A stretch of 62,536 nt of DNA. It comes from a virus. The position numbers and the translations under genes were made by a program. Location: positions 1 through 62,536 of the IMG/VR virus record IMGVR_UViG_3300017991_000116; one strand, written 5' to 3'. Every line of letters starts with the position of its first letter. The first letter of the stretch is position 1. The notes beneath the pieces were generated by a model that saw only the letters and a list, made by a program, of their open reading frames with translations, was not told where the DNA came from and did no database searches. This document shows, one piece after another, positions 3,492-22,800 of this stretch.

Positions 3492-3548
3492 GTTAGTCTC
3501 CTTCTACCTCGCGCTCCCTGGGTTTTTCTCTCGTGCTAGAGGGGAGTT

Positions 3549-4592
3549 TTACCTTCCCGCTTGGTGGCCTGGGAGACCTGACAGTTCCCTGAGCGTACCC
3601 AGATCCACTCCAACTCCGTTGTAGTCTGTCACACGTTGAGGTGACGGGGAAGGGGCTTCCTCCGACAGGGGTGTCGGGGAAACGCCACCGCCCGTCAAGC
3701 GACGGACTCGCGAACGAACGTCCTCAAGATCCTCCGTCTCGGGGGTCGATGCCACCAAGTGCTCTTGGATGATCTTGTCAACTGCTTGCTTCGAACGAGG
3801 ATTCGATGCCTCGAGGATCTTGCGTACCTCGGCCTTGCGAGGATGGGCCGAAAGGCGTTGCTCGATGTACACCTCGAGTCCGAACTCCTTGTTTGCTTCG
3901 ATGCTCTTCTCGAGCGCTTCGGCGAGCTTGTCGAGCTCACCGCGAAGGGCCTGGCTCTCGGTCCGTGCGGCCTCGAGCTCCTTCTTGTGCGCCTCTTCGC
4001 GCGCCTCGATGTTCTTGCGCGCCTCTTCCTGCTCGGCGGCTTCCTCGGCCCGGCGAGCGTGGAGCTCGTCACGAACCTCCTGCACTCGAGCCTTGAACGC
4101 GTCAGCGTTCTCGAACTGGGCGAAGTCTCCGAGCATGGAGCGGACGAGACCACCGTCGGGGTCACCAGCCAAGGTGCGCTCGAGGTAGTACTTGTAGCCC
4201 GCTTCGCGCGCCATGGATGCCAGCGATTCGATCTGCTCCCCCGACTCCTTGAGCTTCAGGTCCGCTTCGGCGAGCTTGCGGTTGAGCTCCTTGATCTCCT
4301 CGTCCTTCTTCGCGACGAGCGTGTCGGTGTCCTCGGGGAGGATGAAGGGGCGCATGATGGCGGCGATCTGCTCGATCGTCGTGCGTGCTCCGCCGATGGC
4401 CGGGTCGGCCATGAGCTGCGAGCGGATTTCCTCACGCGCCTCTGCGGACAGCTTGCCCAGATTCGCGATGATGTCCTGTTCGATCTGAGCGCGGTCTGCT
4501 GTACCGTTGGCCTCCGCCTCGGCCTCGGCTTGAACCTTGTCCGCGAAAGCCTTTGCTTGCTCTTGTTCCTTCGCCTGCGCCTCGGTGCCCAT
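3549..4592 (-). CDS. Nested scaffold protein from internal start
   Basis: In-frame ATG at 4592 inside the protease-scaffold gene, preceded by AAGGAG at 7 nt. It would give a 347-residue scaffold without the protease domain. The layout parallels lambda C/Nu3, where scaffold is translated from an internal start in the protease gene. The nested product starts MGTEA, the same five residues as the major capsid protein. The start signal is seen directly; its use is inferred. Confidence 0.5.
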   Translation of the reverse strand: MGTEAQAKEQEQAKAFADKVQAEAEAEANGTADRAQIEQDIIANLGKLSAEAREEIRSQLMADPAIGGARTTIEQIAAIMRPFILPEDTDTLVAKKDEEIKELNRKLAEADLKLKESGEQIESLASMAREAGYKYYLERTLAGDPDGGLVRSMLGDFAQFENADAFKARVQEVRDELHARRAEEAAEQEEARKNIEAREEAHKKELEAARTESQALRGELDKLAEALEKSIEANKEFGLEVYIEQRLSAHPRKAEVRKILEASNPRSKQAVDKIIQEHLVASTPETEDLEDVRSRVRRLTGGGVSPTPLSEEAPSPSPQRVTDYNGVGVDLGTLRELSGLPGHQAGR

Positions 4593-5144
4593 GGTGCGCT
4601 CCTTGTCCTCGCTGAAAACTTCGGGGTATGCCGTAGTGTCGGCTGGCTCCGCGACGAAGTCAAAGGTGACGAGGTTGTAGTCGTCTTGGACGACTTCCTC
4701 GCCCTTCTCATTGGTTCGCGTTGATCCGTAGCCTCGGGAAGAGACGCCGACCTTGCAGCCGGCCCGAAGCATTGCTTGAAGGTCTTTCCCTCTTGCAGTG
4801 TCCAAAGCCTCGGCCTCGCCAAGTACGATGCCGTTCTGCTGAATCTCCAACCCAGTCACGAGGTGAGAGACGCGTGAGAGCTGCGTACGCCCGTCGTTAG
4901 GATGGTCGAGCTCGCCGTAGAGCTTCCGCTCGGCCATCGCAGGATCAACTTTGCCGATCTCCCGCTCCCACAACGCGGTCGGGTAGATGCGCTTGTTCTC
5001 GGTCGCCCTTCCGGAGCGAGCGAACTCACCTCGCACAATGATCTTCCCTCCGTTGGTGCCGTCCTCGACCAACTGCAACGCGATCGGGAGAGCATCCACC
5101 AAGAGGTGGCCTTTGTGCGTGGTGTTTTCTTCGAGCTTACCCAT
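3549..5144 (-). CDS. Prohead core protease fused to scaffold (gp21 + gp22-like)
   Basis: 531 residues in two parts. Residues 1 to about 180 are a T4 gp21-type serine protease, with the candidate triad at His81 (GELDHP), Ser135/136 (GVSSRGYG) and an Asp in FDFVAEPA (about 162). Residues from about 185 are a long, highly charged coiled-coil scaffold (Glu, Lys, Ala, Arg-rich), ending in a Pro/Ser-rich tail. In T4 these are separate genes. An internal ATG at codon 185 with its own ribosome site suggests that free scaffold is also made. The first ATG overlaps the small upstream ORF as TGATG. Confidence 0.88.
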   Translation of the reverse strand: MGKLEENTTHKGHLLVDALPIALQLVEDGTNGGKIIVRGEFARSGRATENKRIYPTALWEREIGKVDPAMAERKLYGELDHPNDGRTQLSRVSHLVTGLEIQQNGIVLGEAEALDTARGKDLQAMLRAGCKVGVSSRGYGSTRTNEKGEEVVQDDYNLVTFDFVAEPADTTAYPEVFSEDKERTMGTEAQAKEQEQAKAFADKVQAEAEAEANGTADRAQIEQDIIANLGKLSAEAREEIRSQLMADPAIGGARTTIEQIAAIMRPFILPEDTDTLVAKKDEEIKELNRKLAEADLKLKESGEQIESLASMAREAGYKYYLERTLAGDPDGGLVRSMLGDFAQFENADAFKARVQEVRDELHARRAEEAAEQEEARKNIEAREEAHKKELEAARTESQALRGELDKLAEALEKSIEANKEFGLEVYIEQRLSAHPRKAEVRKILEASNPRSKQAVDKIIQEHLVASTPETEDLEDVRSRVRRLTGGGVSPTPLSEEAPSPSPQRVTDYNGVGVDLGTLRELSGLPGHQAGR

Positions 5145-5269
5145 CAGTACCTTCGCCAGCGGAACTTCCCCCGGAAGGGAGTGTGATCTAGAGCGGAGTT
5201 CGACTTGTTCTTGGTCCTGCGTGTCTTCCTAGCAAACGGGTTCTTGGTGTCGCCTTCGAAGCCTATCAC
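5144..5269 (-). CDS. Possible 41-residue basic protein
   Basis: A GTG-initiated ORF whose TGA overlaps the protease ATG by one base (TGATG), the coupling used throughout this genome. The product is very basic (Arg/Lys-rich, ending FRWRRY). T4 carries small head-core genes (67, 68) at this spot between portal and protease, so a core peptide is plausible, but the ribosome site is weak. A 7-bp hairpin with a CCGA loop sits just upstream (about 5285-5305). Confidence 0.35.
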   Translation of the reverse strand: MIGFEGDTKNPFARKTRRTKNKSNSALDHTPFRGKFRWRRY

Positions 5270-5316
5270 CTCTTTGCGGCCGGAAGGGTATGCCTCCCGG
5301 CGTCGGCGCCAGGCTT

Positions 5317-6339
5317 CTACTTCTTGCCCTTCTTGCCCTTCCTCTTCCTCGCCATCGTCAAAGGGGACTTCTTGCCTTTTCCCTTTCGACGCCGAGCTTC
5401 TTGGACTCCGACTTCGTCGTCCTCGTCGTCGTCCTCTTCCTCGTCGTCGTCCTCGCCGTTTCCCTCGGGGGGTTCCTCGGTGCCGGGAGGTCCGTCCGTC
5501 TCCCCCATCGGAGGCTCGTCAGTCGGCGGCTCCTCGGCCGGCGGCTCCTCGGTGGGCTCTTCCTCGCCCTCGGGCGGCATCTCGTCTTCCTTGCCGGTGA
5601 CGTCGTTGTAGAGCTGGAGTGCGTCAAGCAGCTTCGCCATGAGCTTCTTGAACATCACGTCCACCTGAGCATCGTCGCCGTCCGCAGAAGCGAGAGGGGC
5701 TTCGTCGCCGTCAGGCTCTTCGCCCTCGGGCGGCGGCATCGGGGGCTCTTCGCCCTGGTCGAGCGCGAGCGCCGTGTCGGCGGCCTGCTCGGAGAGCTTC
5801 TTCATCTGCTGCCCGACTTCGTACATGCCACGTTCGCTGATCTCCATGCCCCATGCCGTGAAGCGCTTGCCCAGCGTCTCGGCGATGACGGCGATGTTCG
5901 CGAAGCCCTTGATCTGCTCCTCGCGGCGCGAGCGCTTGATGCCCGTCACGATCTCGTTGACTTCCTCGAGCAGGGACTGCGCGCGGTTGCTGTGCGAGGT
6001 CGGGGCGCCAGTCGGGGCGTCTTCGTAGAGACGACCATCGGCCAGACGCTGGAGACGCGACTCGGAAGTCTGCGCGGGGGCGGGGGCGTCAGGCTTCGCA
6101 GCCTTGGGGCCGTGAGACGCCAGGAACTCCTGAGCGCGCGAGGCGATGAAGTCGAATGCCTCAGCAGCGTCCTTCGGCTCGTCAGGCTCGTCGACCGGCG
6201 TCTCCTCGCCTTCGTCAGAAACTTCGCCACCCTCCGGGTCGGGCTTGGGGGCGTCCTGTTCCTGATCGTCCGTCTCGTTGAACAGGCCGATGTCCTTCAG
6301 ATCTTCAGTGAGGGACGTGAGGTGCGCGCGGCTTGCCAT
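5317..6339 (-). CDS. Acidic head-core / scaffold-associated protein
   Basis: 340 residues. A helical middle (about 95-200) is flanked by acidic Glu/Asp/Pro-rich stretches. Residues about 240-310 are almost all E, D, P and G, and the final about 30 residues are extremely Lys/Arg-rich. An acidic core with a basic tail, encoded between portal and prohead protease, fits an internal head-core protein. No named family recognised. Codon usage matches its neighbours despite the low-complexity composition. Confidence 0.6.
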   Translation of the reverse strand: MASRAHLTSLTEDLKDIGLFNETDDQEQDAPKPDPEGGEVSDEGEETPVDEPDEPKDAAEAFDFIASRAQEFLASHGPKAAKPDAPAPAQTSESRLQRLADGRLYEDAPTGAPTSHSNRAQSLLEEVNEIVTGIKRSRREEQIKGFANIAVIAETLGKRFTAWGMEISERGMYEVGQQMKKLSEQAADTALALDQGEEPPMPPPEGEEPDGDEAPLASADGDDAQVDVMFKKLMAKLLDALQLYNDVTGKEDEMPPEGEEEPTEEPPAEEPPTDEPPMGETDGPPGTEEPPEGNGEDDDEEEDDDEDDEVGVQEARRRKGKGKKSPLTMARKRKGKKGKK

Positions 6340-6354
6340 GGTGCTTTCTCCTGC

Positions 6355-7281
6355 TTACTGAGCTTCACGAAGCCGTGTGGACATGGTCGTGACAAATCGG
6401 CCTGCGACCTGGTAGTCGTTCAGTTCTTCCACCACCGCGTCATGCAACTTCCCTAGACAGTCGGGCTTCGACAACTGGGAGGGGGCTGCCACGAGGACGT
6501 CGTGGAGACGTCGAAGATCGGAAATCAGGTCTTCTGACAAGGTGGAGAGCATGCGAATGGATTCGTCCTGCAAGTCCTCAGACCTTACCACAGAACAAAG
6601 GTTGTCGTAAGCGGCCTCGACTTGCTCGAGGAGCCCACCGACCCTGGTAGCCACAGAAGCCAGATCAGTTACGACCAAGTCCTTGTACCGATCGAGCTCC
6701 TTCGCCTCCACGATCGAACCGTTGTAGAGCAGTCGGAACTTGGGGGCGTCCGCTGCCTCGACGAGCTGGCCGGGGCGAAGCCCCGCCGACTCACGGATAC
6801 GCTGCTTGCGCTCACCGTAGATCGACTTCCACGGCCGCAGAGCCTTGAGCGAAACGATGAAGGACTCGACCATCTTGGAGTCGTCCATCGTGTTGCCGTC
6901 CACGAGATGCGAGATGGCGGCGATGCGCTTCTGCGCCTGCTCGACTCGACCTTCCATCCACTCGGCAACTGCCGTCTTCACTTCACCCGAAACGAACTCC
7001 TTCAGGTTGGCCTGCGAGTAGGACTTGATGTCGACCGACGAGAAGCCTTCGATCTGAAGAGAGCCTTCGTCGTTGCGGCCGTACCGGATGCGAATGACGT
7101 CGCCGTCCTCGGACAACGCAACAGCGTAGGTCGAGAACGTGCCCAGCACACGCGACTCCGTCTTCTTTCCGAACAGCTTGACCGAGTGCTGCTGCACCAG
7201 TCCCTCGATCTGAGAGATCAGGTGCTCGTAGCTGCCCTCGGTCAGCTTCTTCACTTCTTCGATCGGAATGAATCGGCTCAT
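6355..7281 (-). CDS. Conserved head-module protein, function unknown
   Basis: 308 residues. The start at 7281 (MSRFIPIEEV) is chosen because GAGG lies 5 nt upstream and a promoter-like sequence lies at 7300-7329. Mostly alpha-helical by composition, no membrane segment or recognised motif; several long amphipathic helices (for example around residues 110-160 and 225-290) suggest a coiled, multimeric virion or assembly protein. It lies directly downstream of the portal gene. Confidence 0.6.
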   Translation of the reverse strand: MSRFIPIEEVKKLTEGSYEHLISQIEGLVQQHSVKLFGKKTESRVLGTFSTYAVALSEDGDVIRIRYGRNDEGSLQIEGFSSVDIKSYSQANLKEFVSGEVKTAVAEWMEGRVEQAQKRIAAISHLVDGNTMDDSKMVESFIVSLKALRPWKSIYGERKQRIRESAGLRPGQLVEAADAPKFRLLYNGSIVEAKELDRYKDLVVTDLASVATRVGGLLEQVEAAYDNLCSVVRSEDLQDESIRMLSTLSEDLISDLRRLHDVLVAAPSQLSKPDCLGKLHDAVVEELNDYQVAGRFVTTMSTRLREAQ

Positions 7282-7299
7282 GTTGCCTCGACGTCTGAA

Positions 7300-7329
7300 A
7301 CAGTACCCACACCCGGTTGGGTCTGTCAA
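7300..7329 (-). promoter_or_regulatory. Putative sigma70-type promoter
   Basis: TTGACA (7324-7329), an 18-nt spacer, then TACTGT (7300-7305), read on the minus strand. It lies between the portal stop and the 7281 start, so it could boost head-core expression. Confidence 0.45.
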
Positions 7330-7340
7330 CACGATGCCCT

Positions 7341-9131
7341 CTACCTAGAGGACTTCGACAGATCCAAAAGAAATTGCCTCGTCTCCATCATGCTGCTCTG
7401 AAGGCTTCCGTTCTGTCGGAGGATGCGATCCAACTTCTCTTCGGCCCTCTTCTCTGATCCCTTGTTGCCCGACATGAGCTCACGCTCTGAGATACCCCTA
7501 GCTCCGGTGTGGAGCAAGGAACTTCGTGCGTGCGGGTCGGTCCATCGCCGTTCCTTGCTGCCCATCATGCCGGGAGGGGCGCCACCCGGAGCGCCGCCCG
7601 GAGCGCCACCGCCGCCATCATCTCCACCGATCTTCTGCGCGGCCGCGTCTGCTCGAGCCTGCTGCTCGGCCTCCCTGATCTTCTCTTCGCCACGCTGCCT
7701 GATCAAGACTTCGATTTCCTTGTCGCTCATCCCGTACACGCGACGGTAGATCCAATAGAGCGACACGTCCTCCTTCATGCGACTCGCGAGGTCGGCTCGA
7801 GCATTCTTCACCTCGAGCTGCGCGAGCTCGAAGATGGAGCTCGGGACGGTCATGTGCACGTCAAACTTCGCTTCGTGCGGGTCCACTCCCAGTGCGGCGA
7901 GATGCACACGACACACCTTGCGCAACCCACTGATGACCTCCCGCTGCAAGCGCAGGACCGACCGTGCGAAGCGTACGTCCTCGGACGAGAGAACGGCTCG
8001 AGCCGTGTTGTCGTCTTGCGCAAGGTACGCCTTCGGAATCATCAGGGCCGTGAACAGCTTGTTGAGGAAGAACTCGATGTCCTCCATGTGCTGCCACACC
8101 GGGCCGGCAAGCACGTCCACCCGAGTCGAGTCTTGCCCCTGCCTGGTCGGCAGGAAGATGTCCTCGTCCTGGGAGAGCGGGTTGAACTTCTGATCGATCT
8201 GCTGCGTCGTCGGGTTGACGAACTTGCGCTTCTTGTACTGCTGCCGCACCCGGTTGACATACGCGAGCGCCTCGGGCGGGGGCATGTCGCCCGTGTCGAT
8301 GTAGAACGCGAAGCGCTCGGGGGCGCGCTGCAAGCGATAGATGAGCGCCGAGTCCTCGAGCAACAGCAGGCGCTTCCAAATCCACCGAGCTGCCTCGACG
8401 ACCGAGTAGCCGTAGACGCTTCGGCGGTACTTGCTCCGGTGACGGAAGTGGACGACCTCCCAGTCCTCGAGAGCAGTGACCGAAGTGGGATCGAACGCCG
8501 ACGCTCCGGATGAGTTGGCTAGTCCTTCCGCGCCCGCCATGCGGGCTGCAAGGATCTGACGGAACTCCTCGGGCGTGTAGCCGAAGCGACCTTGAAAGTC
8601 CTGCACGAACCCAAACAATTCGCCGCGCGGGCCCTCTATGCGTCGCACTGTCGGAGGCGGCAGGAAGTTGAAGCCTACGACGCCGTCCTTCGTGACCAGA
8701 AGCTCCTCGTAGTCGTTACCGTACTTGCCCAGCGTCCGCGTGATCTCCCAGACTTCCTCGTCGATGCGGAGACGCTTCTGCATCAGGTTGTAGTCGAGCT
8801 CGTCTTGGATGTCGCGGTTCGGGCTCGTGACCCAGACCGACCGGTTGAGCGACGTGTCGGGCTGCGTGGCATCGTCCGCGTAGATCGTCATCGACGCGGA
8901 CACCTCCGGGTAGTCGTCCATCTCCTCGTAGTCCACGTAGCGGGACAAGAGGTCTTGCTCGAGGCGCAGGTAGTCCGAGAGGACGTCGTACCCGTACGCT
9001 TGGAGAAGATCGTACCCTGACCCAGACCAACCGGCCTGCGTCGCACCCTTCGCCAACTGGAGAGGGAGAGCTTCCTTGTCCCTCACCCAGTAGGAGCGAA
9101 CCCTGTTTGCAACGTCCGAGAAAAAACCCAT
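7341..9131 (-). CDS. Portal protein, T4 gp20-like
   Basis: 596 residues, close to T4 gp20 in size. Diagnostic segments are RAPERFAFYIDTGDMP (about residue 270), a YKKRKFVNPTTQQID block, an ED-FLPTR-G stretch and KLFTALMIPKAYL. It forms the dodecameric ring through which the terminase pumps DNA, and initiates prohead assembly. The C-terminus has a Gly/Pro-rich segment (about 515-540) and a charged helical tail that the T4 protein lacks. Located two genes downstream of the terminase. Confidence 0.92.
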   Translation of the reverse strand: MGFFSDVANRVRSYWVRDKEALPLQLAKGATQAGWSGSGYDLLQAYGYDVLSDYLRLEQDLLSRYVDYEEMDDYPEVSASMTIYADDATQPDTSLNRSVWVTSPNRDIQDELDYNLMQKRLRIDEEVWEITRTLGKYGNDYEELLVTKDGVVGFNFLPPPTVRRIEGPRGELFGFVQDFQGRFGYTPEEFRQILAARMAGAEGLANSSGASAFDPTSVTALEDWEVVHFRHRSKYRRSVYGYSVVEAARWIWKRLLLLEDSALIYRLQRAPERFAFYIDTGDMPPPEALAYVNRVRQQYKKRKFVNPTTQQIDQKFNPLSQDEDIFLPTRQGQDSTRVDVLAGPVWQHMEDIEFFLNKLFTALMIPKAYLAQDDNTARAVLSSEDVRFARSVLRLQREVISGLRKVCRVHLAALGVDPHEAKFDVHMTVPSSIFELAQLEVKNARADLASRMKEDVSLYWIYRRVYGMSDKEIEVLIRQRGEEKIREAEQQARADAAAQKIGGDDGGGGAPGGAPGGAPPGMMGSKERRWTDPHARSSLLHTGARGISERELMSGNKGSEKRAEEKLDRILRQNGSLQSSMMETRQFLLDLSKSSR

Positions 9132-12686: not shown

Positions 12687-12715
12687 AGTCTAACGCGATC
12701 GGTCGCGATTGTCAG
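12687..12715 (-). promoter_or_regulatory. Promoter of terminase operon, possibly leaderless
   Basis: CTGACA (12710-12715), 17-nt spacer, TAGACT (12687-12692), then GAAAGC and the ATG at 12680. The stop codon of the polymerase gene (12712) lies inside the -35 box. The spacer also contains a CGCGA/TCGCG inverted repeat. Confidence 0.55.
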
Positions 12716-14460
12716 TGCGCTGCCCAGGACGTGCCGATGTCGGGCTCGGCCAGAATGGGCACGGACTTGATCAGAGGTTGGATGCCGTTGACCATCGCGC
12801 CCTTCACGTCCTCGGCGACGGCTGCCACGAGCTCGGGGTCGTCTTCCGTGTCCGTGACGATCTCGTCGTGAACCATGTGGACCATCTTCGCGGCGCCGTT
12901 GTACTTCTTGAGAGCGTAGTACGTGTTGCGCAAAGCCGCCTTCAGGCCGTCCGCTCCGGTGCCTTGGACTGGCGTGTTGAAGATCTCACCATGAGCCTTC
13001 TCGGGGTCGAGGTAGCGAAGCCGTCCGGAGAGCGTGCGCACGCAGGGGTTGCGACGGAAGTCACGGAGAGCTCGGTCGTGCCAAGCCTTCACGCCCGCGT
13101 ACCCTTCGAAGTAGCGCTTGATGAACTTCTTGGCTTGCCCGAGCGTGATGCTCACGCCGTAGTTCGACTGCGAGTAGATGACGAGTCGCTCGGCGCCGAG
13201 CCCGTAGATGAGCCCGAAGTTGACCGGCTTCGCCGCCTGCCGCTGCTGCTTCGTGACCTCCTCGATCGGAACACCCGACACGATGGAGGCTGTGCGTCGA
13301 TGCGCGTCCTCCCCGTTCAGGTAGATGGACCTGAAGAGGGAGTCGCCCGAAATCTCGGCCGTGATGCGGAGCTCGACCTGGGAGAAGTCGACCACCACGA
13401 TCTTGCGGCCTGGACCAGCCCAGAAGCAATCGCGGTAGTCGTTACCCCTTGGGATCTGTTGGAGGTTCGGCTTGCTGCTCGAGTACCTTCCTGCGCCCGT
13501 GAGGGGCCAGAAATCGGTGTGCACCCGCCCGGTGCTCTTGTCGATGTGCTCGAGGAACTGCTCGCCGAAGGCACTCAGCTTCTTGGACACCTTGCGGTAT
13601 GCCATGAAGGTCGGGATGGCCGGGTGCTTGTGCGCGATCATGGCGAAGGTATCTTCGCGCGTGTCCTCGAGCTCGATGCCCAGTCGCGCGAACGCTGCCT
13701 TCACCTGAACCGGCGAGTTGTAGTTGAAGCCTGCCGAGATGCCCGGCAGCGACAGCATCCCCTTGGGGTGGGGCAGTTCGTAGTCGAGCTTCTTCCGCAG
13801 TTCGATGTGCTTCTCTCGGTTCTGCTCAACGAGTCGCATCCACCGGGTCTTGTCGAGCCGGAAGCCGTTGAGCTCGATGCTCGCCTCTCCGATGATGGCA
13901 CCGAACTCGATGAGCGCGGCCCTCAAGAGCCCCGCCTTCGCGAGCTTCTCCTTGAGCCTGTCGCGCAACACGAGGAGGTGCATGACGTCCTCGGCCGCGT
14001 ACCGGAGCTGCTCCTCGGTCAGGGGCCCCTTCCAGTTCGACTCGCCCGCGTCGGGGACCTCCGGACTGATCTTCAGTTCGCGGCGGTAGAGGTCGTACAG
14101 GTTGTGCCCGAGGTTCTTGCCGTTGTGGTACATCGCCGACGCACGGAAGGTGTCGAACAGGGGCCACAGTTCCAGACCGAACTTGTGCAGGAACCACTTC
14201 TGTTCGAACTTCGCGTTCTGGATGACCTTGACGACGCCTTCGTTCGATAGGGCGTCGCAAACCGGTCCCAACGTCCCCGTCTGGAACAGGTCGATGACGT
14301 AGATACCCTTGCCCGTGTTTAGCTGGACGAGTCGGATCTGACCGTGGTGGGGGGAGAGGGAGGTCGTCTCGATGTCGAGAGCGACGGCTGGTGCCTGAAC
14401 GAGCTCGTTGGCGATGTGCCCGAGTCGTTCAGGGTTGGTGACCAGTTCGTACTCGATCAT
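12712..14460 (-). CDS. DNA polymerase, family A with 3'-5' exonuclease
   Basis: 582 residues, the probable replicative polymerase. The exonuclease domain shows Exo I DIETTSL (29-35), Exo II around NAKFE (about 103) and Exo III YAAEDVMHLL (about 165). The polymerase domain shows motif A VVDFSQVELRI (about 355), motif B RQAAKPVNFGLIYG (about 405) and motif C VHDEIV (about 529). There is no 5'-3' exonuclease domain. Compared with the usual DYSQIELR, motif A here has F and V substitutions at non-catalytic positions. Coupled by ATGA to the histone-like gene upstream. Confidence 0.95.
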   Translation of the reverse strand: MIEYELVTNPERLGHIANELVQAPAVALDIETTSLSPHHGQIRLVQLNTGKGIYVIDLFQTGTLGPVCDALSNEGVVKVIQNAKFEQKWFLHKFGLELWPLFDTFRASAMYHNGKNLGHNLYDLYRRELKISPEVPDAGESNWKGPLTEEQLRYAAEDVMHLLVLRDRLKEKLAKAGLLRAALIEFGAIIGEASIELNGFRLDKTRWMRLVEQNREKHIELRKKLDYELPHPKGMLSLPGISAGFNYNSPVQVKAAFARLGIELEDTREDTFAMIAHKHPAIPTFMAYRKVSKKLSAFGEQFLEHIDKSTGRVHTDFWPLTGAGRYSSSKPNLQQIPRGNDYRDCFWAGPGRKIVVVDFSQVELRITAEISGDSLFRSIYLNGEDAHRRTASIVSGVPIEEVTKQQRQAAKPVNFGLIYGLGAERLVIYSQSNYGVSITLGQAKKFIKRYFEGYAGVKAWHDRALRDFRRNPCVRTLSGRLRYLDPEKAHGEIFNTPVQGTGADGLKAALRNTYYALKKYNGAAKMVHMVHDEIVTDTEDDPELVAAVAEDVKGAMVNGIQPLIKSVPILAEPDIGTSWAAH

Positions 14461-15410: not shown

Positions 15411-15815
15411 TCAGGTTTCGGGGTCTTCGACCCAGCCGTCTGGCATGAATTCGTTGATGTAGAAGTTGACAAGGTCGGCTTCTGTCTTGAGTTGCTTGCT
15501 CAGATCTCCGTACCCCAAGACGTGCCCGCGCACCCCGAGCTGCTGCCAGTATTCGAAAGTCACCTTCCGGAAACGAGCAGTCGCGGGGGCTTCGGGGTCC
15601 GTGAACTTGACCGTTATCAGGCCGTCCTTCTCGGACTCGATTTTGCCTTGCTGGCTACCTCCGCCGAAGCCGAGACCGGTGGTGAAAATCCACTCTATGA
15701 AGTTCCGCGTTCCGTCCGGCGTCTTCCGGGCGACCTCGCGCACGCCGAGTACGAGCTGCACGTCACCCTTGTTCCCCATGTCGAACGCGTAGAGCTGTCG
15801 GAATACGAAGGGCAT
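15411..15815 (-). CDS. Conserved hypothetical protein
   Basis: 134 residues, ATG at 15815 overlapping the stop of the giant gene (TGATG). Mixed alpha/beta composition (FVFRQLYAFDMGNKGDVQLVLGV, then a Gly-rich turn) without recognised motif. Coupling to the 1,724-residue gene suggests it may assist, load or inhibit that protein. Confidence 0.6.
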   Translation of the reverse strand: MPFVFRQLYAFDMGNKGDVQLVLGVREVARKTPDGTRNFIEWIFTTGLGFGGGSQQGKIESEKDGLITVKFTDPEAPATARFRKVTFEYWQQLGVRGHVLGYGDLSKQLKTEADLVNFYINEFMPDGWVEDPET

Positions 15816-18800
15816 CAATCCACCTCTGTCGGCTGCACATACTTCTCGTAGACTTCCCCAGCGTTGTTCGCAACGACGACGAAGTCCTCGACAGGAACGC
15901 CGTTGACCTCGTGCATCCCTGCTTCCTTCAGCTTCTTGATCATCGCGGCCCGCTTGTGTTCCGACTGGGTAGTCACGCGAAGAATCTGCTGCTGCCTGAT
16001 TCCTCGACGGAAACCGATCTCGTGACTCGAGTGGTAGGAACTGGCCTGCCGCTCGGCCGCTCGATCGATCGTGTCACGAGCCTGGTAGACAGGGCCATGG
16101 GAACTGGAACCTGGGTTGGTGCAACCGTAGTGGTCACCGAAGTGCAGGTAGGAGTCGAGCCGGTCGAGCTCGTCGGTGGAAACGATGAGCTGGCACTCCT
16201 TGGCAAACGAGTGACTGTTCAAAGAGTGCCCGAGCCCGGATTCCGTCATCATGTACCCGAGCACGTTGTCGCCTGAACCGGTGCCCACATCGGCCGTTTC
16301 CGACACGCCGATCCCTCGAGGAATTCCTCGAGCATCGCGCTCGCCGATTCCCATCGGACCATTTTGGAGCATCGACACAATAAGGTTGGGGTCGGCACCG
16401 TGGAACACGAACCGGACACCCTTCTCCCGCAGTCGCTTGCCTCGACCCTTCTCGACGCCCGTCGTGTGCCCAGGGAAAGCCTCGACTTCTTCGACGTTCT
16501 CTCCCGACGCCTGTTCGGGAGTCATGCCGGTCGACTCGAGAAGCTTCTGAAGCATCTTTGGGTTCTTCGAATGCTTCGCCATGAGCTTCTTGACCTTGGT
16601 CGGGGTCGTCGCCTTGTCGAGAACGTCGTCTGTCACCCCCATCCGCCTCAGCGCGACCTTCATCCACCCGATCGCAGGCGTGTCCGCAGTCGCAATCGCG
16701 GCCTTCTCTGCCGCCGTGGGCTTCAGTTGCTGCTTCAGTCGCGAGAGAACACCCGACTTGTTCGGGTCCACCTTGCCGTCCACGAGGTCGGCCACCTGTG
16801 GAGCGGACGCCCACAAGAGGCGACGCTGCTTGAGCGCCTGCTTCTCGGCCGGCTTCGGGTTGCGTAGCAGTTCGTCAGCAAGACCCGGCTGGGCTGTGTC
16901 CAAGAGCTCGCGGAGCGCGTCGTCTTCCGTCTGCCCAGGCCGGGGGCGGAGTTTGATGATGACGTGATCCTTGTAGGCGAAGTGGGTGCTCGAGGTGCAC
17001 ATGTGAATCTCGCCCACTTCGGTCTGCAACGAACGGGTCGGGATTCGGCCCATGTTGTAGGAGGAAGAGTGACCGGACTCGTCGGCCCACGAGTCGTCGC
17101 TCGAGTCGAACGACGCTTTCGGGAACACGAACTCGCTCGTGTCCGGAAGAACCAGCTTCTTCGGGAGCGCCTGCGGGCGGATCCGGAAAGAGATCTGCTG
17201 ATAGGTACCCTGCGCGTCCTTGCGGCGCGTCACGCGCATGCCTGAACCGGTCAGACCCGCGCCGTCCGAAGCGTAGCGGCGACCGCCAGCTCCCAGCGTG
17301 GTGCTTCCGACCGTCGCCAAGTCCTGGTTGTTGTCCGTCGCTGGAATGTTCTCGGTGTCGTCGGGGAAGTACCTCGGACGGTCGGGAGTGCTCTTGGCGT
17401 CTCCAGTGGGAGACGGAGGACTGACGACCTCGTCGACCGTGACGGAAGCAGCTTCCCAAGCGTTCTTGTCCACGACGAAGTTCGTGTAGTAGCTACCCAC
17501 GATGGGGTCGTCGAGGTTGTCGGGGTTGATGCCGAGTTGCTCGAACATCTTCTTGACCTTCTCGATCGCAGCGGGGCCTCCACCGTTCTGGACCTTGATC
17601 GTGATCTTGCCTGCTTCGGGTTGCGGGGTACCGGTGGCGGGGTCCTGGTAGGGCGCGGTCTTGATTGTCGTCCCCGCAGCCGCCGCAACCTTCGCCATCA
17701 AAGCCGTAGACTTGTACGTCTTCTTGACGGTCTTCGGAGCCTTCTTGCTGACCTTGCCGGTATCTTCACTCCAACCCGTGTCGAACGTGAAAGTGCCGTC
17801 CTTGCTCCCGGTCTTCTGCCGGTAGAGCTTCGTGAAGAACGCTTCGAAGTCCTTGCGCAGGTCGAGCTTGCGCTTGCGTGCTGCCTTCAGGAACTTAGCC
17901 TGCTCCTCGGGCTTGCCTGGGTAGAGCGCCTCCGCGTAGGGCCGCAGCTTCGCGATGTAGTCCTTCGTCGACATGTTCTCGATGGCCTGGAGACCCTCGA
18001 GCATGTCCATGGGGTCCATGTCGTACTTGCCTTCGACCCAACCCTTCCAGAGCGAGTTGTAGATCGGAGGCTGGCCGACGTGGTTCGGATCGTAGTCGAG
18101 GGAGAGCGTGTCTCCGGGGAAGAACCGGAAGCCCTGTTCCTTGTCCACACCGATGATCTGCCCGTTCGCAGCTCGGATGAACTGACCCCCGTGACTGTCG
18201 TGCTGGGAACCGAGCCAGTCGAGAAGATGCTCTCGAGCGAGCGTCTGCCGGTCCTCGTCCGAAAGACTCTCGACGGAAGCGTGACCCAAGTCGGGTTGCT
18301 TGGGATCCCGGTCGACCATGGGCTGCAACGTGCCCAGCTTCCCGCCGAGCGTCATGACTCCCACGGGAACAGGGTACTCACCGCCGTGCACGATCTGGGC
18401 AATCTCCGCGTACGCCTGCTGAACGGCAGCCGCGAAGGGCTTGGACTGGGAGCCGCCCTTGGTCTGCGCGACCTTGAAGAGCCACTTGTTGCCGTCCTTG
18501 TCCACGTAGATGCGCTTGTCACCTGCACCGCCGAGGAAGTTGCCGCTGCCCACGAGGGAGAGCTCCTCGGGCTTCGGGATGCCGGCCGGTGGCTTGATCT
18601 TCTCGACCGCCTTCTTGGAAGGAGTCGCCACGGGCTCTTCGGGAACTCCCGGCGCAGCCGGTGGCAAGTCCTCGACCGCAGCCGCACTCGGGGTGACGGC
18701 CACGTCCTTCTCCGCTTGAGCCTGCTTGACGAACTTCTTCAGTTCCTTGATCTTCTTCGGAGACGTGGTGGTCGGCGACTCCTCGTGCGCCTTGATCAGA

Positions 18801-20989
18801 ACGTTGGCGAGCTCGATGGCCTCGTCCCAGTTCTGGGTGCCGTGCAGTTCGTCAACAGCCTTCTGGATGATGACCTTCTGCTTGCCTGTCAGTTCGGCCG
18901 CGTTCTCGGTGAGCCACTTGATGTCCTTCTTCTTGATCGCGGACTTGACCTGCTTCGCGGTCGGCTTGTTGGCCTTCTTCTGCGCTTCGGTCTCCTTCGC
19001 GGCCTGCACCTTCGAAGTCAGGATCTTCACGAGGTTGCTAGCCTTCTGCGCGTAGGAGGCAGCAGCAGCGGGGTCGCCGCTCGTCGCCATCGCCTGACCC
19101 AGCAACGAGGCTGCTTTGACGGCGTCCTTCAACTGGTCCGTCGTCAGGGCATGTGCTTCGCCCGTGTCCACGACCATGCCCGCGAGCGTCGTCTGCTGCT
19201 CGGGGCTGAGCTCCGCGACGTTGGCCTTCAGCGCTGCCCAGTCGCCCTTCGCCAGAGCCTCGTCGAAACCTTCGTAGCCGGGGGCGACCTTCGGAGCCTC
19301 TTCGATCGGGTCGGAGAGCTCGGCCTGCTTCTGGAGGAAGTTTTCGGTCATCGCCTCGTCGAGCACGCTCACCCACTCAGGGGCGCTCGTCGCGGCACTG
19401 TCCGAGAGAATCTCGAGCAGCTTGAGGCACTGGTTCACCTCCTCCGCGTTCATGTTGTCGATGGGCAGATTCAACGGAGCGGTGTTGACGAGGCTCTTGA
19501 TCTGCGCCTTGCTGAGCGTCCCGAGCTTCGCGAGCTCCTCTGGGTCTCCGTTCGCGGCAGCTACCTCTTCGTCGGAGGGGTGCGGAACCTCGGGCTCCTT
19601 GCCGAGCTTTATCTCGAGCGCTGTGGCCTGCGAGGTATAGTACGCGGCAGCACCAGTCTGCCCCGCAGCCGTCGCCCTCTCGGCCAAGATCTTCGCTAGC
19701 TCGAGCGCTTTGCCGACGTACTCGGCAGACATCTCGTCATTGAACGCTGCCGAAACAATGTCGATAGCCTGACTCTCTTGACTCTCGGTCATGGAGGGAG
19801 CGAGCTCCTTGAGCTTCTCCCAGTCTCCGTTCTGGAACGCCCCGAACACTTCCTCGTCGGACGGAGGCGTTGGAGGAGGCGGTACGCCAATCTCCTCGAG
19901 GGACTTGTCGGACGGCACGAGCTCGTCCTCGCTGATACCCGTGGGGGTCGCCTGCGTCGCGACCTTCACCGGCTTGCCGTTCTTCATCTCGTAGACCGCG
20001 CCCGTGGTGGGATCGATCCATTGGCCTTCCTTCAGGTCGACCTCGTAGACCTCCTTGGTCTTCGGGTGCACGAACTGGTTCGGCTGGAGACCGGCTTCGT
20101 CCTGAAGCTGAAGAGCTTCGTCCTGCGTGAAGTACGAAGGCTTCACTGCCGGGTTCCAGTAGACAGGCTTGGCCTTCAGCGGCTCGGGTGTCTCCGGTTC
20201 GGCTGCCGGTTCCTCGCCGGGCTCGAGCGGAGCGTCTGGGTCACCGTCTGGACTCAGTCCCCATGGGTCGTCGGCCGGCTTCTCAGGCTCCGCCGGTTCC
20301 TCGGGCGGAGGTTCCTCGGGAGAGGGCTCCTCGCCGGGCTCCGCCGGGGGCTCTGCGGGCTCTTCAGGCTCCGCAGGCTCATCCGGTGCCGGTTCGTCGG
20401 CGGGAGGCTCCTCGGGCGGTTTCTCGTCCTCTGGCGGAGGCTCCTCGTCAGGCTTCGGCTCGGCCTTCGGCAGGTTGTCCGCACCGACAGGCTCGGGCAT
20501 CTCGGTCGGGACCGGCTCTCCAGCGGCGACTGCCTTCTGGAAGGTGTCCTGCGGCTCGACGCCCATCTCCTTGAGCTTCTTCGCCAGCATCTTGAGCTTG
20601 TTCGAAGGAATCCAAGCAGCGCCACCTTCGACGCCCATCTCCGGAACCTTGTCCTGACCAGGCATCGGCTCGAGCTGAGGGTCGGCCGAGGACGGGTCGT
20701 CGATGTCACCGATGGGCGGGTACTCGTCTGTCGTACCCTCGGGCGGGTCCATCAGAGAAGCGGCGTGCTTCTGCATGTTGTCGAGGTTGATCCAAGTCGG
20801 CTTCGCACCACCTGCCTGCTTCTTCCAGACGAGCACCTTCTTGTATTGGGTGCCGTCCTTCTTCGTGGCCGTCTTCATCCCGATGATCTTGACTTCGATC
20901 AACGGGTCGTGGACGAGCTCGTAGGCATCCAGAAGGGGAACCGACCCCTCCCAAAGAAGCAGCCCTAGCGGGCGGTACGGGAAGCCCAT
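15815..20989 (-). CDS. Giant multidomain (polyvalent-type) protein: helical repeats, kinase-like and ART-like domains
   Basis: 1,724 residues from the ATG at 20989, the largest gene here. In order: a beta-rich head (1-100); a Pro/Glu-rich linker (about 165-290); about four helical repeats built on a GDW-x-x-L motif (about 395-760); a kinase-like domain (about 812-1055) with a Gly-rich FLGGAGDKRIYVDKDGNKW loop, catalytic-loop-like SQHDSHGGQF and metal-binding-like VDKEQGF; an unassigned middle; and a C-terminal module (about 1520-1670) opening FVFHG, with GIGVSETADVG and SSHEIGFRRG, resembling a PARP-type H...E ADP-ribosyltransferase. Located in the structural/packaging half, it may be packaged and injected like T4 Alt. 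Domain calls are by eye. Confidence 0.6.
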   Translation of the reverse strand: MGFPYRPLGLLLWEGSVPLLDAYELVHDPLIEVKIIGMKTATKKDGTQYKKVLVWKKQAGGAKPTWINLDNMQKHAASLMDPPEGTTDEYPPIGDIDDPSSADPQLEPMPGQDKVPEMGVEGGAAWIPSNKLKMLAKKLKEMGVEPQDTFQKAVAAGEPVPTEMPEPVGADNLPKAEPKPDEEPPPEDEKPPEEPPADEPAPDEPAEPEEPAEPPAEPGEEPSPEEPPPEEPAEPEKPADDPWGLSPDGDPDAPLEPGEEPAAEPETPEPLKAKPVYWNPAVKPSYFTQDEALQLQDEAGLQPNQFVHPKTKEVYEVDLKEGQWIDPTTGAVYEMKNGKPVKVATQATPTGISEDELVPSDKSLEEIGVPPPPTPPSDEEVFGAFQNGDWEKLKELAPSMTESQESQAIDIVSAAFNDEMSAEYVGKALELAKILAERATAAGQTGAAAYYTSQATALEIKLGKEPEVPHPSDEEVAAANGDPEELAKLGTLSKAQIKSLVNTAPLNLPIDNMNAEEVNQCLKLLEILSDSAATSAPEWVSVLDEAMTENFLQKQAELSDPIEEAPKVAPGYEGFDEALAKGDWAALKANVAELSPEQQTTLAGMVVDTGEAHALTTDQLKDAVKAASLLGQAMATSGDPAAAASYAQKASNLVKILTSKVQAAKETEAQKKANKPTAKQVKSAIKKKDIKWLTENAAELTGKQKVIIQKAVDELHGTQNWDEAIELANVLIKAHEESPTTTSPKKIKELKKFVKQAQAEKDVAVTPSAAAVEDLPPAAPGVPEEPVATPSKKAVEKIKPPAGIPKPEELSLVGSGNFLGGAGDKRIYVDKDGNKWLFKVAQTKGGSQSKPFAAAVQQAYAEIAQIVHGGEYPVPVGVMTLGGKLGTLQPMVDRDPKQPDLGHASVESLSDEDRQTLAREHLLDWLGSQHDSHGGQFIRAANGQIIGVDKEQGFRFFPGDTLSLDYDPNHVGQPPIYNSLWKGWVEGKYDMDPMDMLEGLQAIENMSTKDYIAKLRPYAEALYPGKPEEQAKFLKAARKRKLDLRKDFEAFFTKLYRQKTGSKDGTFTFDTGWSEDTGKVSKKAPKTVKKTYKSTALMAKVAAAAGTTIKTAPYQDPATGTPQPEAGKITIKVQNGGGPAAIEKVKKMFEQLGINPDNLDDPIVGSYYTNFVVDKNAWEAASVTVDEVVSPPSPTGDAKSTPDRPRYFPDDTENIPATDNNQDLATVGSTTLGAGGRRYASDGAGLTGSGMRVTRRKDAQGTYQQISFRIRPQALPKKLVLPDTSEFVFPKASFDSSDDSWADESGHSSSYNMGRIPTRSLQTEVGEIHMCTSSTHFAYKDHVIIKLRPRPGQTEDDALRELLDTAQPGLADELLRNPKPAEKQALKQRRLLWASAPQVADLVDGKVDPNKSGVLSRLKQQLKPTAAEKAAIATADTPAIGWMKVALRRMGVTDDVLDKATTPTKVKKLMAKHSKNPKMLQKLLESTGMTPEQASGENVEEVEAFPGHTTGVEKGRGKRLREKGVRFVFHGADPNLIVSMLQNGPMGIGERDARGIPRGIGVSETADVGTGSGDNVLGYMMTESGLGHSLNSHSFAKECQLIVSTDELDRLDSYLHFGDHYGCTNPGSSSHGPVYQARDTIDRAAERQASSYHSSHEIGFRRGIRQQQILRVTTQSEHKRAAMIKKLKEAGMHEVNGVPVEDFVVVANNAGEVYEKYVQPTEVD

Positions 20990-20993
20990 CGGT

Positions 20994-21722
20994 TCAGTCC
21001 TCGTTGTCGCCGATTTCAGGATCCTGCGCCCACGGTGGGGACCACACGATGCTGTCACCTTCAAGCATCATCAGTTCCCAGGACCGCTTGGACAGTTCGG
21101 CCGCACGACGCATGACGCCGTTGGTGCGAGCGAAAACGTTCACGCTCACGGTGTCGCGGAAGTCGAGTCCCGTGTTGACCGTGACGGTGATGAACTCCTT
21201 GTGGGGGTCGCTCTGTTGCGCGGCTGCCATGCGGAATTCCTTCTGCGCGATGGAACCCACGTCGAGCATCCCCCGCACGCCGGTCTGGAGACCCTTCGCA
21301 GACTTGAGCATCGCCGCGAGAACCTGCTTCTCGCTCTGCATCGTGAGCGGCGTGGGCTTCTTGCCGAACTTGGGGGAGCTGCGCTTGGTACTGATCGAGT
21401 AGCGCTTCGCCACCTCGTACATGCTCGTACGCCCCGTGGCGAAGAACCCGTAGGCTTTGCCAGTGACCGCCACGACACCCCGGATGGCTCCGTTCACGTC
21501 GGCGTTCGCTCGCCGGGAAGTGAGGGGGTCTTCCGCTGCGGCCACACTCTCGGCCGCCCTGACGACTTTCTGGATCGCCTCGAGGTAGAGATCGCCCATC
21601 CGGACGAAGCTCCGCCAAGAGTTTGCGGTGTCGAGCAAAGGCTTGCGCATGGCGTTGCCCTCGACGAGAAGATCGGTTTCGAGCAGCTCGCGGGCTTCGA
21701 TGATGCGGCGCTGTAGACTCAT
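20994..21722 (-). CDS. Hypothetical protein preceding the giant gene
   Basis: 242 residues, start at 21722 with a GGAGG site 6 nt upstream and a promoter at 21745-21773. Long helices, a basic middle (about residues 100-130: KRYSISTKRSSPKFGKK) and a beta-like TVTVNTGLDFRDTVSVNVF segment. No recognised domain. It is separated by only a few nucleotides from the giant gene, so the two are co-transcribed. Confidence 0.6.
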   Translation of the reverse strand: MSLQRRIIEARELLETDLLVEGNAMRKPLLDTANSWRSFVRMGDLYLEAIQKVVRAAESVAAAEDPLTSRRANADVNGAIRGVVAVTGKAYGFFATGRTSMYEVAKRYSISTKRSSPKFGKKPTPLTMQSEKQVLAAMLKSAKGLQTGVRGMLDVGSIAQKEFRMAAAQQSDPHKEFITVTVNTGLDFRDTVSVNVFARTNGVMRRAAELSKRSWELMMLEGDSIVWSPPWAQDPEIGDNED

Positions 21723-21744: not shown

Positions 21745-21773
21745 GTTCTACCAGAAGCCGGGGGTTGTGTCAG
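21745..21773 (-). promoter_or_regulatory. Putative promoter of giant-protein operon
   Basis: CTGACA (21768-21773), 17-nt spacer, TAGAAC (21745-21750). The TGA of the ParB-like gene (21770) lies within the -35 box. The leader to the ATG at 21722 is short (about 16 nt) and contains GGAGG. Confidence 0.5.
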
Positions 21774-22582
21774 CCAACCGCCTCGGAGTCACCCTCGAGC
21801 TCTTCCTTCTCGCGGGCTTCGGCTTCCTTCACCCAACGCTCCGTCACCTTGCCAATCACTTCGTTGACGTCGTGCCCCCATTCTCGGGCAAACTTGAGGA
21901 CGCGATCAACCGCCTTCTTGGTCTTCTTGCTCAAGGCGACGTAGACGTGCTCCTTGCCGCCGTAGGAGAAGACCATGAACGAGTACTCCATCGTGTCGCC
22001 GTGCTCGTTGAACATCTTGTTCAGGATCGTCCCTAGATCGTCCAGGGTCTTGGCCTCGCCCACGGCATCACTGATCTTGTCCTGCGTCTGCTTCGGGAGC
22101 CCAGTGGCCTTGATACCCTTCTGGACCTGGTGCACGAGCTTCTTCCAACCGTCCAGGTCGGTGAAGGCGAACATGCGACGCAGCGGCTTCTCGCCGTACT
22201 TGGTCGCCATCTCGCGGTACAGCGCCGCCAACTTGTCAGGGTTGGGCTTGCCGTGCAGGGAGTTGAGACGGACCGTGACGAACTTCTGAAGGTCTTCGTC
22301 TTGCCACCGAGCGTCCGACAGGATGACGCAAGGAAGCGACTCGTAGCCGAGCGTCTTGGCGGCTTCGTAGCGGTGGGCCCCGCCGAGGATGCGGTAGGAC
22401 CCGTCCACCATGGGAACGATGTGAAGGGGCTCTATGAAGCCGTTCTCCTTGATCTCGGAGACGAGCCACGCGAACTCCTCACTCGTCATCTCGTTCGCGT
22501 TCCACGCGTTCTTCTCGATGAGGTCGAGGTCGACGCTCATCACGGTGGGGGTTTCCGGCACGCCCTGTGGAGAGTCGGTCAT
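21770..22582 (-). CDS. ParB/Srx-fold protein
   Basis: 270 residues, ATG at 22582 overlapping the upstream stop (ATGA). Residues about 15-100 carry the ParB/sulfiredoxin N-terminal pattern: LIEKNAWNANEM, IKENGFIEPLHIVP, then GGAHRYEAAKTLGYESLPCVI, where the GxHRxxAA loop binds CTP or ATP in family members. The rest is helical and basic with an acidic end. It sits among ssb, ruvC and a helix-turn-helix gene, so a role in DNA handling or regulation is more likely than partitioning; no ParA is present. Confidence 0.7.
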   Translation of the reverse strand: MTDSPQGVPETPTVMSVDLDLIEKNAWNANEMTSEEFAWLVSEIKENGFIEPLHIVPMVDGSYRILGGAHRYEAAKTLGYESLPCVILSDARWQDEDLQKFVTVRLNSLHGKPNPDKLAALYREMATKYGEKPLRRMFAFTDLDGWKKLVHQVQKGIKATGLPKQTQDKISDAVGEAKTLDDLGTILNKMFNEHGDTMEYSFMVFSYGGKEHVYVALSKKTKKAVDRVLKFAREWGHDVNEVIGKVTERWVKEAEAREKEELEGDSEAVG

Positions 22583-22800
22583 TGCGATGTCAGGGCCTCC
22601 ACCAACGTGTCGCACTTGCCCGAAACGATTTGGAGCTCACCAACGAATTCACGGAGGAAGCTCTCGAGCGCCTCGGGGTCCTGCGCCGGGATCGACACAC
22701 CGGGGATGCCGACCTCCACTCGCTCCTGCCACTTCTTGAGGATGGCGATGCCCGTCTCGAGCTCGTTGTGCATCACTTCGGGGGACACAGGAAGGTTCAT
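22579..22800 (-). CDS. Small helical protein
   Basis: 73 residues, ATG at 22800 (MNLPVSPEVMHNELETG) overlapping the upstream stop as ATGA, and its own stop overlapping the ParB-like start. Helical throughout, acidic, no metal motif. Probably a subunit or adaptor for one of its coupled neighbours. Function unknown. Confidence 0.55.
   Translation of the reverse strand: MNLPVSPEVMHNELETGIAILKKWQERVEVGIPGVSIPAQDPEALESFLREFVGELQIVSGKCDTLVEALTSQ

What the first reader, a model, noticed from the sequence alone, without database searches (positions are those of the whole stretch)
15815..20989. Giant multidomain protein with kinase-like and ADP-ribosyltransferase-like domains
A 1,724-residue protein combines about four GDW-type helical repeats (about 395-760), a kinase-like fold with SQHDSHGGQF and VDKEQGF motifs (about 812-1055) and a C-terminal FVFHG...GIGVSETADVG...HEIGFRRG module like PARP-type transferases (about 1520-1670). 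The motifs are seen in the sequence. T4 Alt is a known injected ART, and polyvalent proteins are known to fuse such effectors. That this one is packaged in the head and modifies host proteins on entry is inferred from its place in the structural half. I do not recall this exact domain combination in a described phage protein.
Basis: partly seen in the sequence, partly recalled or inferred. Interest (0 to 1): 0.85.

Follow-up and report, generated by a model that had tools for sequence, protein, structure and literature searches.

The report
Phage kinase plus DarT-like ADP-ribosyltransferase effector
This virus gene makes a very large protein with two predicted enzymes, a HipA-like kinase and an enzyme resembling the DNA-modifying toxin DarT, and it belongs to a large, apparently undescribed phage family in which the two enzymes travel together, usually with a small partner gene that may be an antidote.

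Summary
In detail: a 1,724-aa ORF on the minus strand (15815-20989) has four helical repeats, a kinase-like domain (about 812-1059) and a C-terminal ART fold (about 1500-1707). AlphaFold models match HipA-like kinase CtkA and, for the ART, DarT first, not PARP. The combination is not unique: of 124 phage and prophage ORFs with this kinase, 89 end in the DarT-like ART and 13 in an unrelated R-S-E ART (PF03496). In most relatives outside the window's clade the protein starts with a MuF or minor-head domain next to portal; the window's clade has no MuF and sits between ParB-like and DNA polymerase genes. A small downstream gene (135 aa here, TGATG overlap) accompanies the DarT-like forms (74/86) and none of 13 R-S-E forms, and stays with the cassette in both locations. 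Best reading: a two-enzyme effector used against the host, with a small antidote-like partner. Folds and linkage are shown; activity, targets, packaging in this phage and antidote role are inferred. MuF toxins and phage ARTs are known; this is a new variant.

The parts
15815..20989 (-). giant protein, 1,724 aa (ATG 20989, stop 15817-15815)
20456..20989 (-). N-terminal region, residues 1-178, 55% identical to the closest relative L006; no MuF domain found
18710..19864 (-). four helical repeats, residues 376-760 (several more copies in L006)
17813..18556 (-). HipA/PI3K-like kinase domain, residues 812-1059
18179..18202 (-). kinase catalytic loop HDSHGGQF (D931; Q936 where most relatives have N)
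18140..18148 (-). DFG-equivalent motif VDK (D949 and K950, 100% of 66)
16736..17653 (-). conserved middle domain, residues 1113-1418, unknown function
15869..16492 (-). DarT-like ART module, residues 1500-1707
16019..16021 (-). E1657, aligned with the DarT catalytic Glu; Glu in 53/56 relatives
15411..15815 (-). small partner protein (dn1 family, about 135 aa), start overlaps the giant gene's stop (TGATG)
20994..21722 (-). 242-aa protein directly upstream, conserved in the window clade (L006, L010, L033, L049)
21770..22615 (-). ParB-like nuclease, context of the window clade
12712..14460 (-). DNA polymerase, context

Best explanation
The gene encodes a two-enzyme phage effector: a HipA/PI3K-like protein kinase, a conserved middle domain and a C-terminal DarT-like mono-ADP-ribosyltransferase on one chain, fronted here by helical repeats that probably act as a docking or spacer arm. 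In most relatives outside the window's clade the same cassette is fused to a MuF or other minor head protein encoded next to portal, so it is probably carried in the head and enters with the DNA; in this phage the MuF anchor is missing and the route (packaged internal protein, or made in the cell) is open. Once in the cytoplasm the ART probably ADP-ribosylates a host macromolecule (nucleic acid as DarT does, or protein as T4 Alt does) and the kinase phosphorylates a host protein or the effector itself. The translationally coupled small gene downstream probably encodes an inhibitor that protects the producing cell while virions are made. Shown: folds, conserved putative catalytic residues, linkage of kinase + ART + small partner. 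Inferred: activities, targets, delivery, antidote role.
For: Kinase: model pLDDT mostly 90+ over the domain, top PDB match CtkA, prob 1.00, E 1.5e-4; HipA_C in 18/51 and PI3_PI4_kinase in 12/51 relatives; K839 97%, D931 98%, N/Q936 100%, D949 100% of 66. ART: model pLDDT 83.7, pTM 0.84; top eight PDB matches all DarT; profile-profile score 37.2 against DarT versus at most 19.1 for 100 column shuffles and 17.0 reversed, with E1657 on the DarT Glu. Linkage: of 124 kinase ORFs, 89 end in the DarT-like ART, 13 in an R-S-E ART, 8 are cut by contig ends; in three Bacillota genomes kinase and ART are two neighbouring ORFs. MuF: 27/44 N-termini match PF04233, with portal or terminase directly upstream. 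Partner: dn1 or dn2 directly downstream in 74/86 DarT-like forms and 0/13 R-S-E forms; sensitive search finds likely divergent copies in several of the rest. MuF toxins followed by small immunity ORFs: PMC5576092; an experimentally neutralised MuF-ART: PMC11699363.
Against: No activity is tested. The window's kinase has Q at the Mg-binding Asn position, though 38% of relatives do too. The window's ART has Y1579 where 50/56 relatives have Arg, and TM-scores to DarT are moderate (0.53-0.54 by target for the best two). No MuF and no position among head genes here. The partner is absent with the R-S-E ART, but those phages form one kinase clade, so lineage alone could explain part of the contrast; the Fisher value ignores this relatedness. 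The partner has no known fold or immunity family.
Confidence: 0.5

Rival explanations
1. It is a cytoplasmic toxin-antitoxin-like or superinfection-exclusion module in the window's clade, made during infection and not packaged: the cassette left the head module, lost MuF, and keeps only its small antidote.
For: No MuF in the record; gene next to ParB-like nuclease and DNA polymerase rather than head genes; same context in the sister phages; the small partner kept.
Against: A 1,724-aa chain with long repeats is costly for a simple toxin; other phages package ARTs without MuF (T4 Alt, from PMC5512222); the structural genes lie downstream on the same strand.
Confidence: 0.3
2. The ART modifies host proteins (Alt-like hijacking of host machinery) rather than nucleic acid; the DarT resemblance is only shared fold.
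For: Sequence identity to DarT is only about 12-17%; phage ARTs with known targets mostly modify proteins (PMC9503650, PMC5512222).
Against: All top structural matches are DarT, and the profile match is specific against shuffles.
Confidence: 0.4
3. The kinase-like domain is a regulatory or non-catalytic part that holds the ART inactive until delivery, not an effector enzyme.
For: It is nearly always upstream of an ART on the same chain, of two unrelated types; N to Q variation at the metal site.
Against: Lys, catalytic Asp and DFG-like Asp are 97-100% conserved over 66 diverse sequences, unlike typical pseudokinases.
Confidence: 0.25
4. It is only a structural or assembly minor head protein, and the small gene downstream is an ordinary head-module gene.
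For: MuF fusion and portal neighbourhood in many relatives.
Against: Conserved active-site residues in both enzyme domains; the small gene follows the cassette away from the head module.
Confidence: 0.07

Closest known systems
MuF polymorphic toxins (Jamet 2017, PMC5576092; Bxa, PMC11699363)
   Same: Minor head protein with C-terminal enzyme, ART included, encoded next to portal, followed by a small immunity-type ORF; many relatives found here fit this.
   Different: The window protein has no MuF and is away from the head module; the papers read describe no kinase domain or DarT-like ART in such proteins.
Mycobacteriophage 'minor capsid and ADP-ribosyltransferase domain fusion' proteins (McProf, prophiFSQJ01-1) and Onyinye/Aikoy ADP-ribosyltransferase
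   Same: Homologous kinase domain (about 27-35% identity) followed by an ART on the same chain.
   Different: Their ART is R-S-E type PF03496, not DarT-like; the middle domain and small partner were not found; the kinase part is not annotated.
DarT of DarTG
   Same: ART fold; aligned catalytic Glu; significant profile match.
   Different: Part of a giant chain with a kinase; no macrodomain DarG-type antitoxin in the window record; several invariant residues are its own.
HipA-like kinases (HipA, CtkA)
   Same: Fold and catalytic Lys, Asp, N/Q, Asp pattern.
   Different: Own motif set (DWLxSNHDxH, GIDKxQ), linked to ART.
Polyvalent phage proteins (Iyer 2017, PMC5512222)
   Same: Large phage proteins combining kinases, ARTs and MuF.
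   Different: Their ART is H-Y-D (HYD2) type and their kinase is a truncated Ser/Thr kinase form; neither matches this family as described.
T4 Alt
   Same: Packaged, injected ART as functional model.
   Different: R-S-E ART with no kinase domain; packaging not shown here.

Membership tests
MuF polymorphic toxins | N-terminal MuF domain | tested here: not met
   No PF04233 match anywhere in the window record; present in 27/44 relatives' N-termini
MuF polymorphic toxins | gene directly after portal in the packaging module | tested here: not met
   Window gene lies between ParB-like and DNA polymerase genes; met in MuF relatives
MuF polymorphic toxins | C-terminal toxin-type enzyme domain | tested here: met
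   ART fold at the C-terminus
MuF polymorphic toxins | small immunity ORF immediately downstream | tested here: inconclusive
   Conserved small ORF present with TGATG overlap; immunity function untested
DarT | DarT/ART fold | tested here: met
   Top eight PDB matches are DarT; hhalign 37.2 versus at most 19.1 shuffled
DarT | Pfam PF14487 match over the cut-off | tested here: not met
   No match for the window; 2 of 39 relatives weakly, best E 0.0083
DarT | catalytic Glu | tested here: met
   E1657 aligned, Glu in 53/56
DarT | ADP-ribosylation of DNA bases | not testable with these tools
   biochemistry needed
DarT | DarG macrodomain antitoxin partner | tested here: not met
   No PF01661 match in the window record
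PARP-type (H-Y-E) ART | conserved His on the first strand | tested here: not met
   H1530 is His in 7/56
HipA/PI3K-like kinase | fold and catalytic residues | tested here: met
   CtkA top match; residues; Pfam in relatives
HipA/PI3K-like kinase | Pfam HipA_C match in the window protein itself | tested here: not met
   No HipA_C match for the window protein
HipA/PI3K-like kinase | phosphotransfer activity | not testable with these tools
   biochemistry needed
R-S-E (Alt/VIP2) ART | PF03496-type sequence | tested here: not met
   Found in the McProf, Aikoy, L051 and L074 proteins, not in the window protein

The most novel reading that the evidence does not exclude
A widespread phage effector class in which a HipA-like kinase and a DarT-like ART act together on entry, the ART modifying host (or competitor phage) nucleic acid and the kinase controlling it or hitting a second target, with a dedicated small antidote: phages using against bacteria the same chemistry that DarTG uses against phages.
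Probability: 0.22. Interest if true: 0.85.

Novelty: new variant of a known kind. Interest (0 to 1): 0.62.

Why it matters
It defines a large, mostly unannotated family of phage and prophage proteins (isolates include Desulfosarcina, Desulfobulbus and Ectothiorhodospira genomes) that pair two enzyme types used in bacterial persistence and anti-phage defence, HipA-like kinase and DarT-like ART, and names a candidate antidote gene that makes function directly testable. It would extend head-delivered ARTs beyond the Alt/VIP2 and N4 types described as MuF fusions.

Tried and rejected
Single-sequence searches found almost nothing: Pfam, PHROGs and PDB sequence on the whole protein, the ART module alone against phage records and viral contigs, the middle region, and the full protein in viral contigs; the kinase alignment was needed to pull the family out. 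PARP-type reading of FVFHG was rejected because the His is not conserved. The PDB profile search with the ART alignment gave no sequence match. dn1 and dn2 partners are not homologous by profile comparison (score 9.4, E 0.6) and match no family. No integrase, resolvase, macrodomain, MuF or second kinase was found in the window. The idea that kinase-ART pairing arose many times was dropped: the R-S-E forms group in one kinase clade, so one swap of ART type is enough.

Full report
Observation. The finding's coordinates are right but the gene is on the minus strand: ATG 20989, stop 15817-15815, 1,724 aa. Repeats, kinase-like motifs and C-terminal module are present. The repeats are at about 376-760 and clearly related for the first three; the fourth is weaker. 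The window is a whole IMG/VR record of 62,536 bases with a T4-gp23-like capsid protein. The gene lies between ParB-like/SSB/RuvC genes and DNA polymerase, with terminase, portal, protease and capsid further downstream on the same strand, so it is not among the structural genes.

Kinase. tblastn against phage records hit only residues 811-1029, in 12 mycobacteriophage records, several annotated as minor capsid/ADP-ribosyltransferase fusions. An alignment of these found 121 relatives in IMG/VR, 80 kept, and 38 loci in bacterial genomes. Members match HipA_C (18/51) and PI3_PI4_kinase (12/51). The AlphaFold model of residues 795-1495 has pLDDT 83.1, mostly above 90 over the kinase; the low pTM of 0.50 leaves domain arrangement uncertain. 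Its best PDB match is Helicobacter pylori CtkA, a HipA-like kinase, followed by ordinary protein kinases. In 66 non-redundant copies K839 (97%), D931 (98%), N or Q at 936 (100%), D949 and K950 (100%) are kept. The window has Q936.

ART. The C-terminal module has relatives in 60 of about 85 proteins first fetched, always at the C-terminal end. The model (pLDDT 83.7, pTM 0.84) matches eight DarT entries first, then Tpt1, CteC and Scabin. Against a DarT alignment built from genomes, hhalign scores 37.2; 100 column shuffles reach at most 19.1 and the reversed alignment 17.0; E1657 falls on the DarT Glu. That this Glu is catalytic in DarT is from my own knowledge. In 56 non-redundant modules G1555, S1563, D1567, G1571, D1612, D1619, G1622 and G1697 are invariant, R1610 is 55/56 and E1657 is 53/56, while His1530 is His in only 7; at 1579 the window has Tyr where 50 have Arg. 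So the fold is an ART close to DarT, not PARP; this particular copy could be impaired.

Linkage. Of 124 ORFs with the kinase, 89 carry the DarT-like ART, 13 an R-S-E ART and 8 are cut by contig ends; 14 have none found, among them three whose ART is on a neighbouring ORF and one frameshifted locus. PF03496 identifies the R-S-E type in McProf, Aikoy (Onyinye-type) and two IMG/VR proteins. The kinase tree puts the R-S-E forms in one clade (100/100), so one exchange of ART type suffices. Three Bacillota genomes carry kinase and ART as neighbouring separate ORFs (L118, L120, L121). A middle domain of about 300 aa is shared by 41 of the first set. Several proteins carry two kinase copies.

Delivery. 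Of 44 N-terminal regions 27 match Phage_Mu_F, and portal and terminase genes are the commonest immediate upstream neighbours outside the window clade, the setting described for MuF toxins (PMC5576092). The window's clade lacks MuF and has ParB-like genes upstream. Packaging in this phage is therefore an inference by analogy, as with T4 Alt.

Partner gene. The 135-aa ORF directly downstream shares one base with the stop codon (TGATG). It belongs to a family (dn1) found in 36 loci at the same place, in both the ParB and the portal settings. All dn1 loci have the middle domain; forms without it have an unrelated small gene, dn2, at the same place (41 loci). Strictly, 74 of 86 DarT-like forms with room have dn1 or dn2 and 0 of 13 R-S-E forms do; sensitive search suggests divergent copies in several of the other 12. 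A gene that follows the cassette between genome settings is probably tied to it in function. MuF toxins are usually followed by small immunity ORFs (PMC5576092), and the MuF-ART Bxa is neutralised by two (PMC11699363). I therefore favour an antidote, but a chaperone or assembly factor is not excluded.

Novelty. The 2022 survey of viral ARTs reports MuF fusions of Alt/VIP2 and N4 types and DarT-related ORF28 in arthropod viruses (PMC9503650); the polyvalent-protein paper reports HYD2 ARTs and a truncated kinase (PMC5512222). Searches for HipA with MuF, and for DarT with MuF, gave no paper on this combination. The library is open-access only, so subscription papers may hold it. I call it a new variant of a known kind.

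Noticed in passing
L118, L120, L121: Kinase and DarT-like ART on two neighbouring ORFs in Desulfofundulus and Desulfovirgula genomes, a natural split of the fusion.
   Followed up: partly
L017, L018, L020, L033, L049, L053, L068: Two kinase copies in one protein; first and second copies form separate clades.
   Followed up: partly
L076 (Mycobacterium phage Phrappuccino gp195): Kinase domain at the N-terminus of a 2,000-aa protein whose later parts look, by eye, like several R-S-E ART-like segments.
   Followed up: no
L115 (Desulfosarcina cetonica): The giant gene is broken into several ORFs, kinase and ART parts in different frames.
   Followed up: no
BFVD A0A068EUD1, Bacillus phage CP-51: A protein with a ParB-like N-terminal domain matches the ART model, recalling the ParB-like neighbour of the window gene.
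   Followed up: no
window 1992-9131: Capsid, protease and portal genes; the capsid protein is T4 gp23-like and only about 35% identical to any phage record.
   Followed up: partly
L020 downstream ORF: A weak dn1 match forms part of a 538-aa ORF directly downstream of the giant gene.
   Followed up: no
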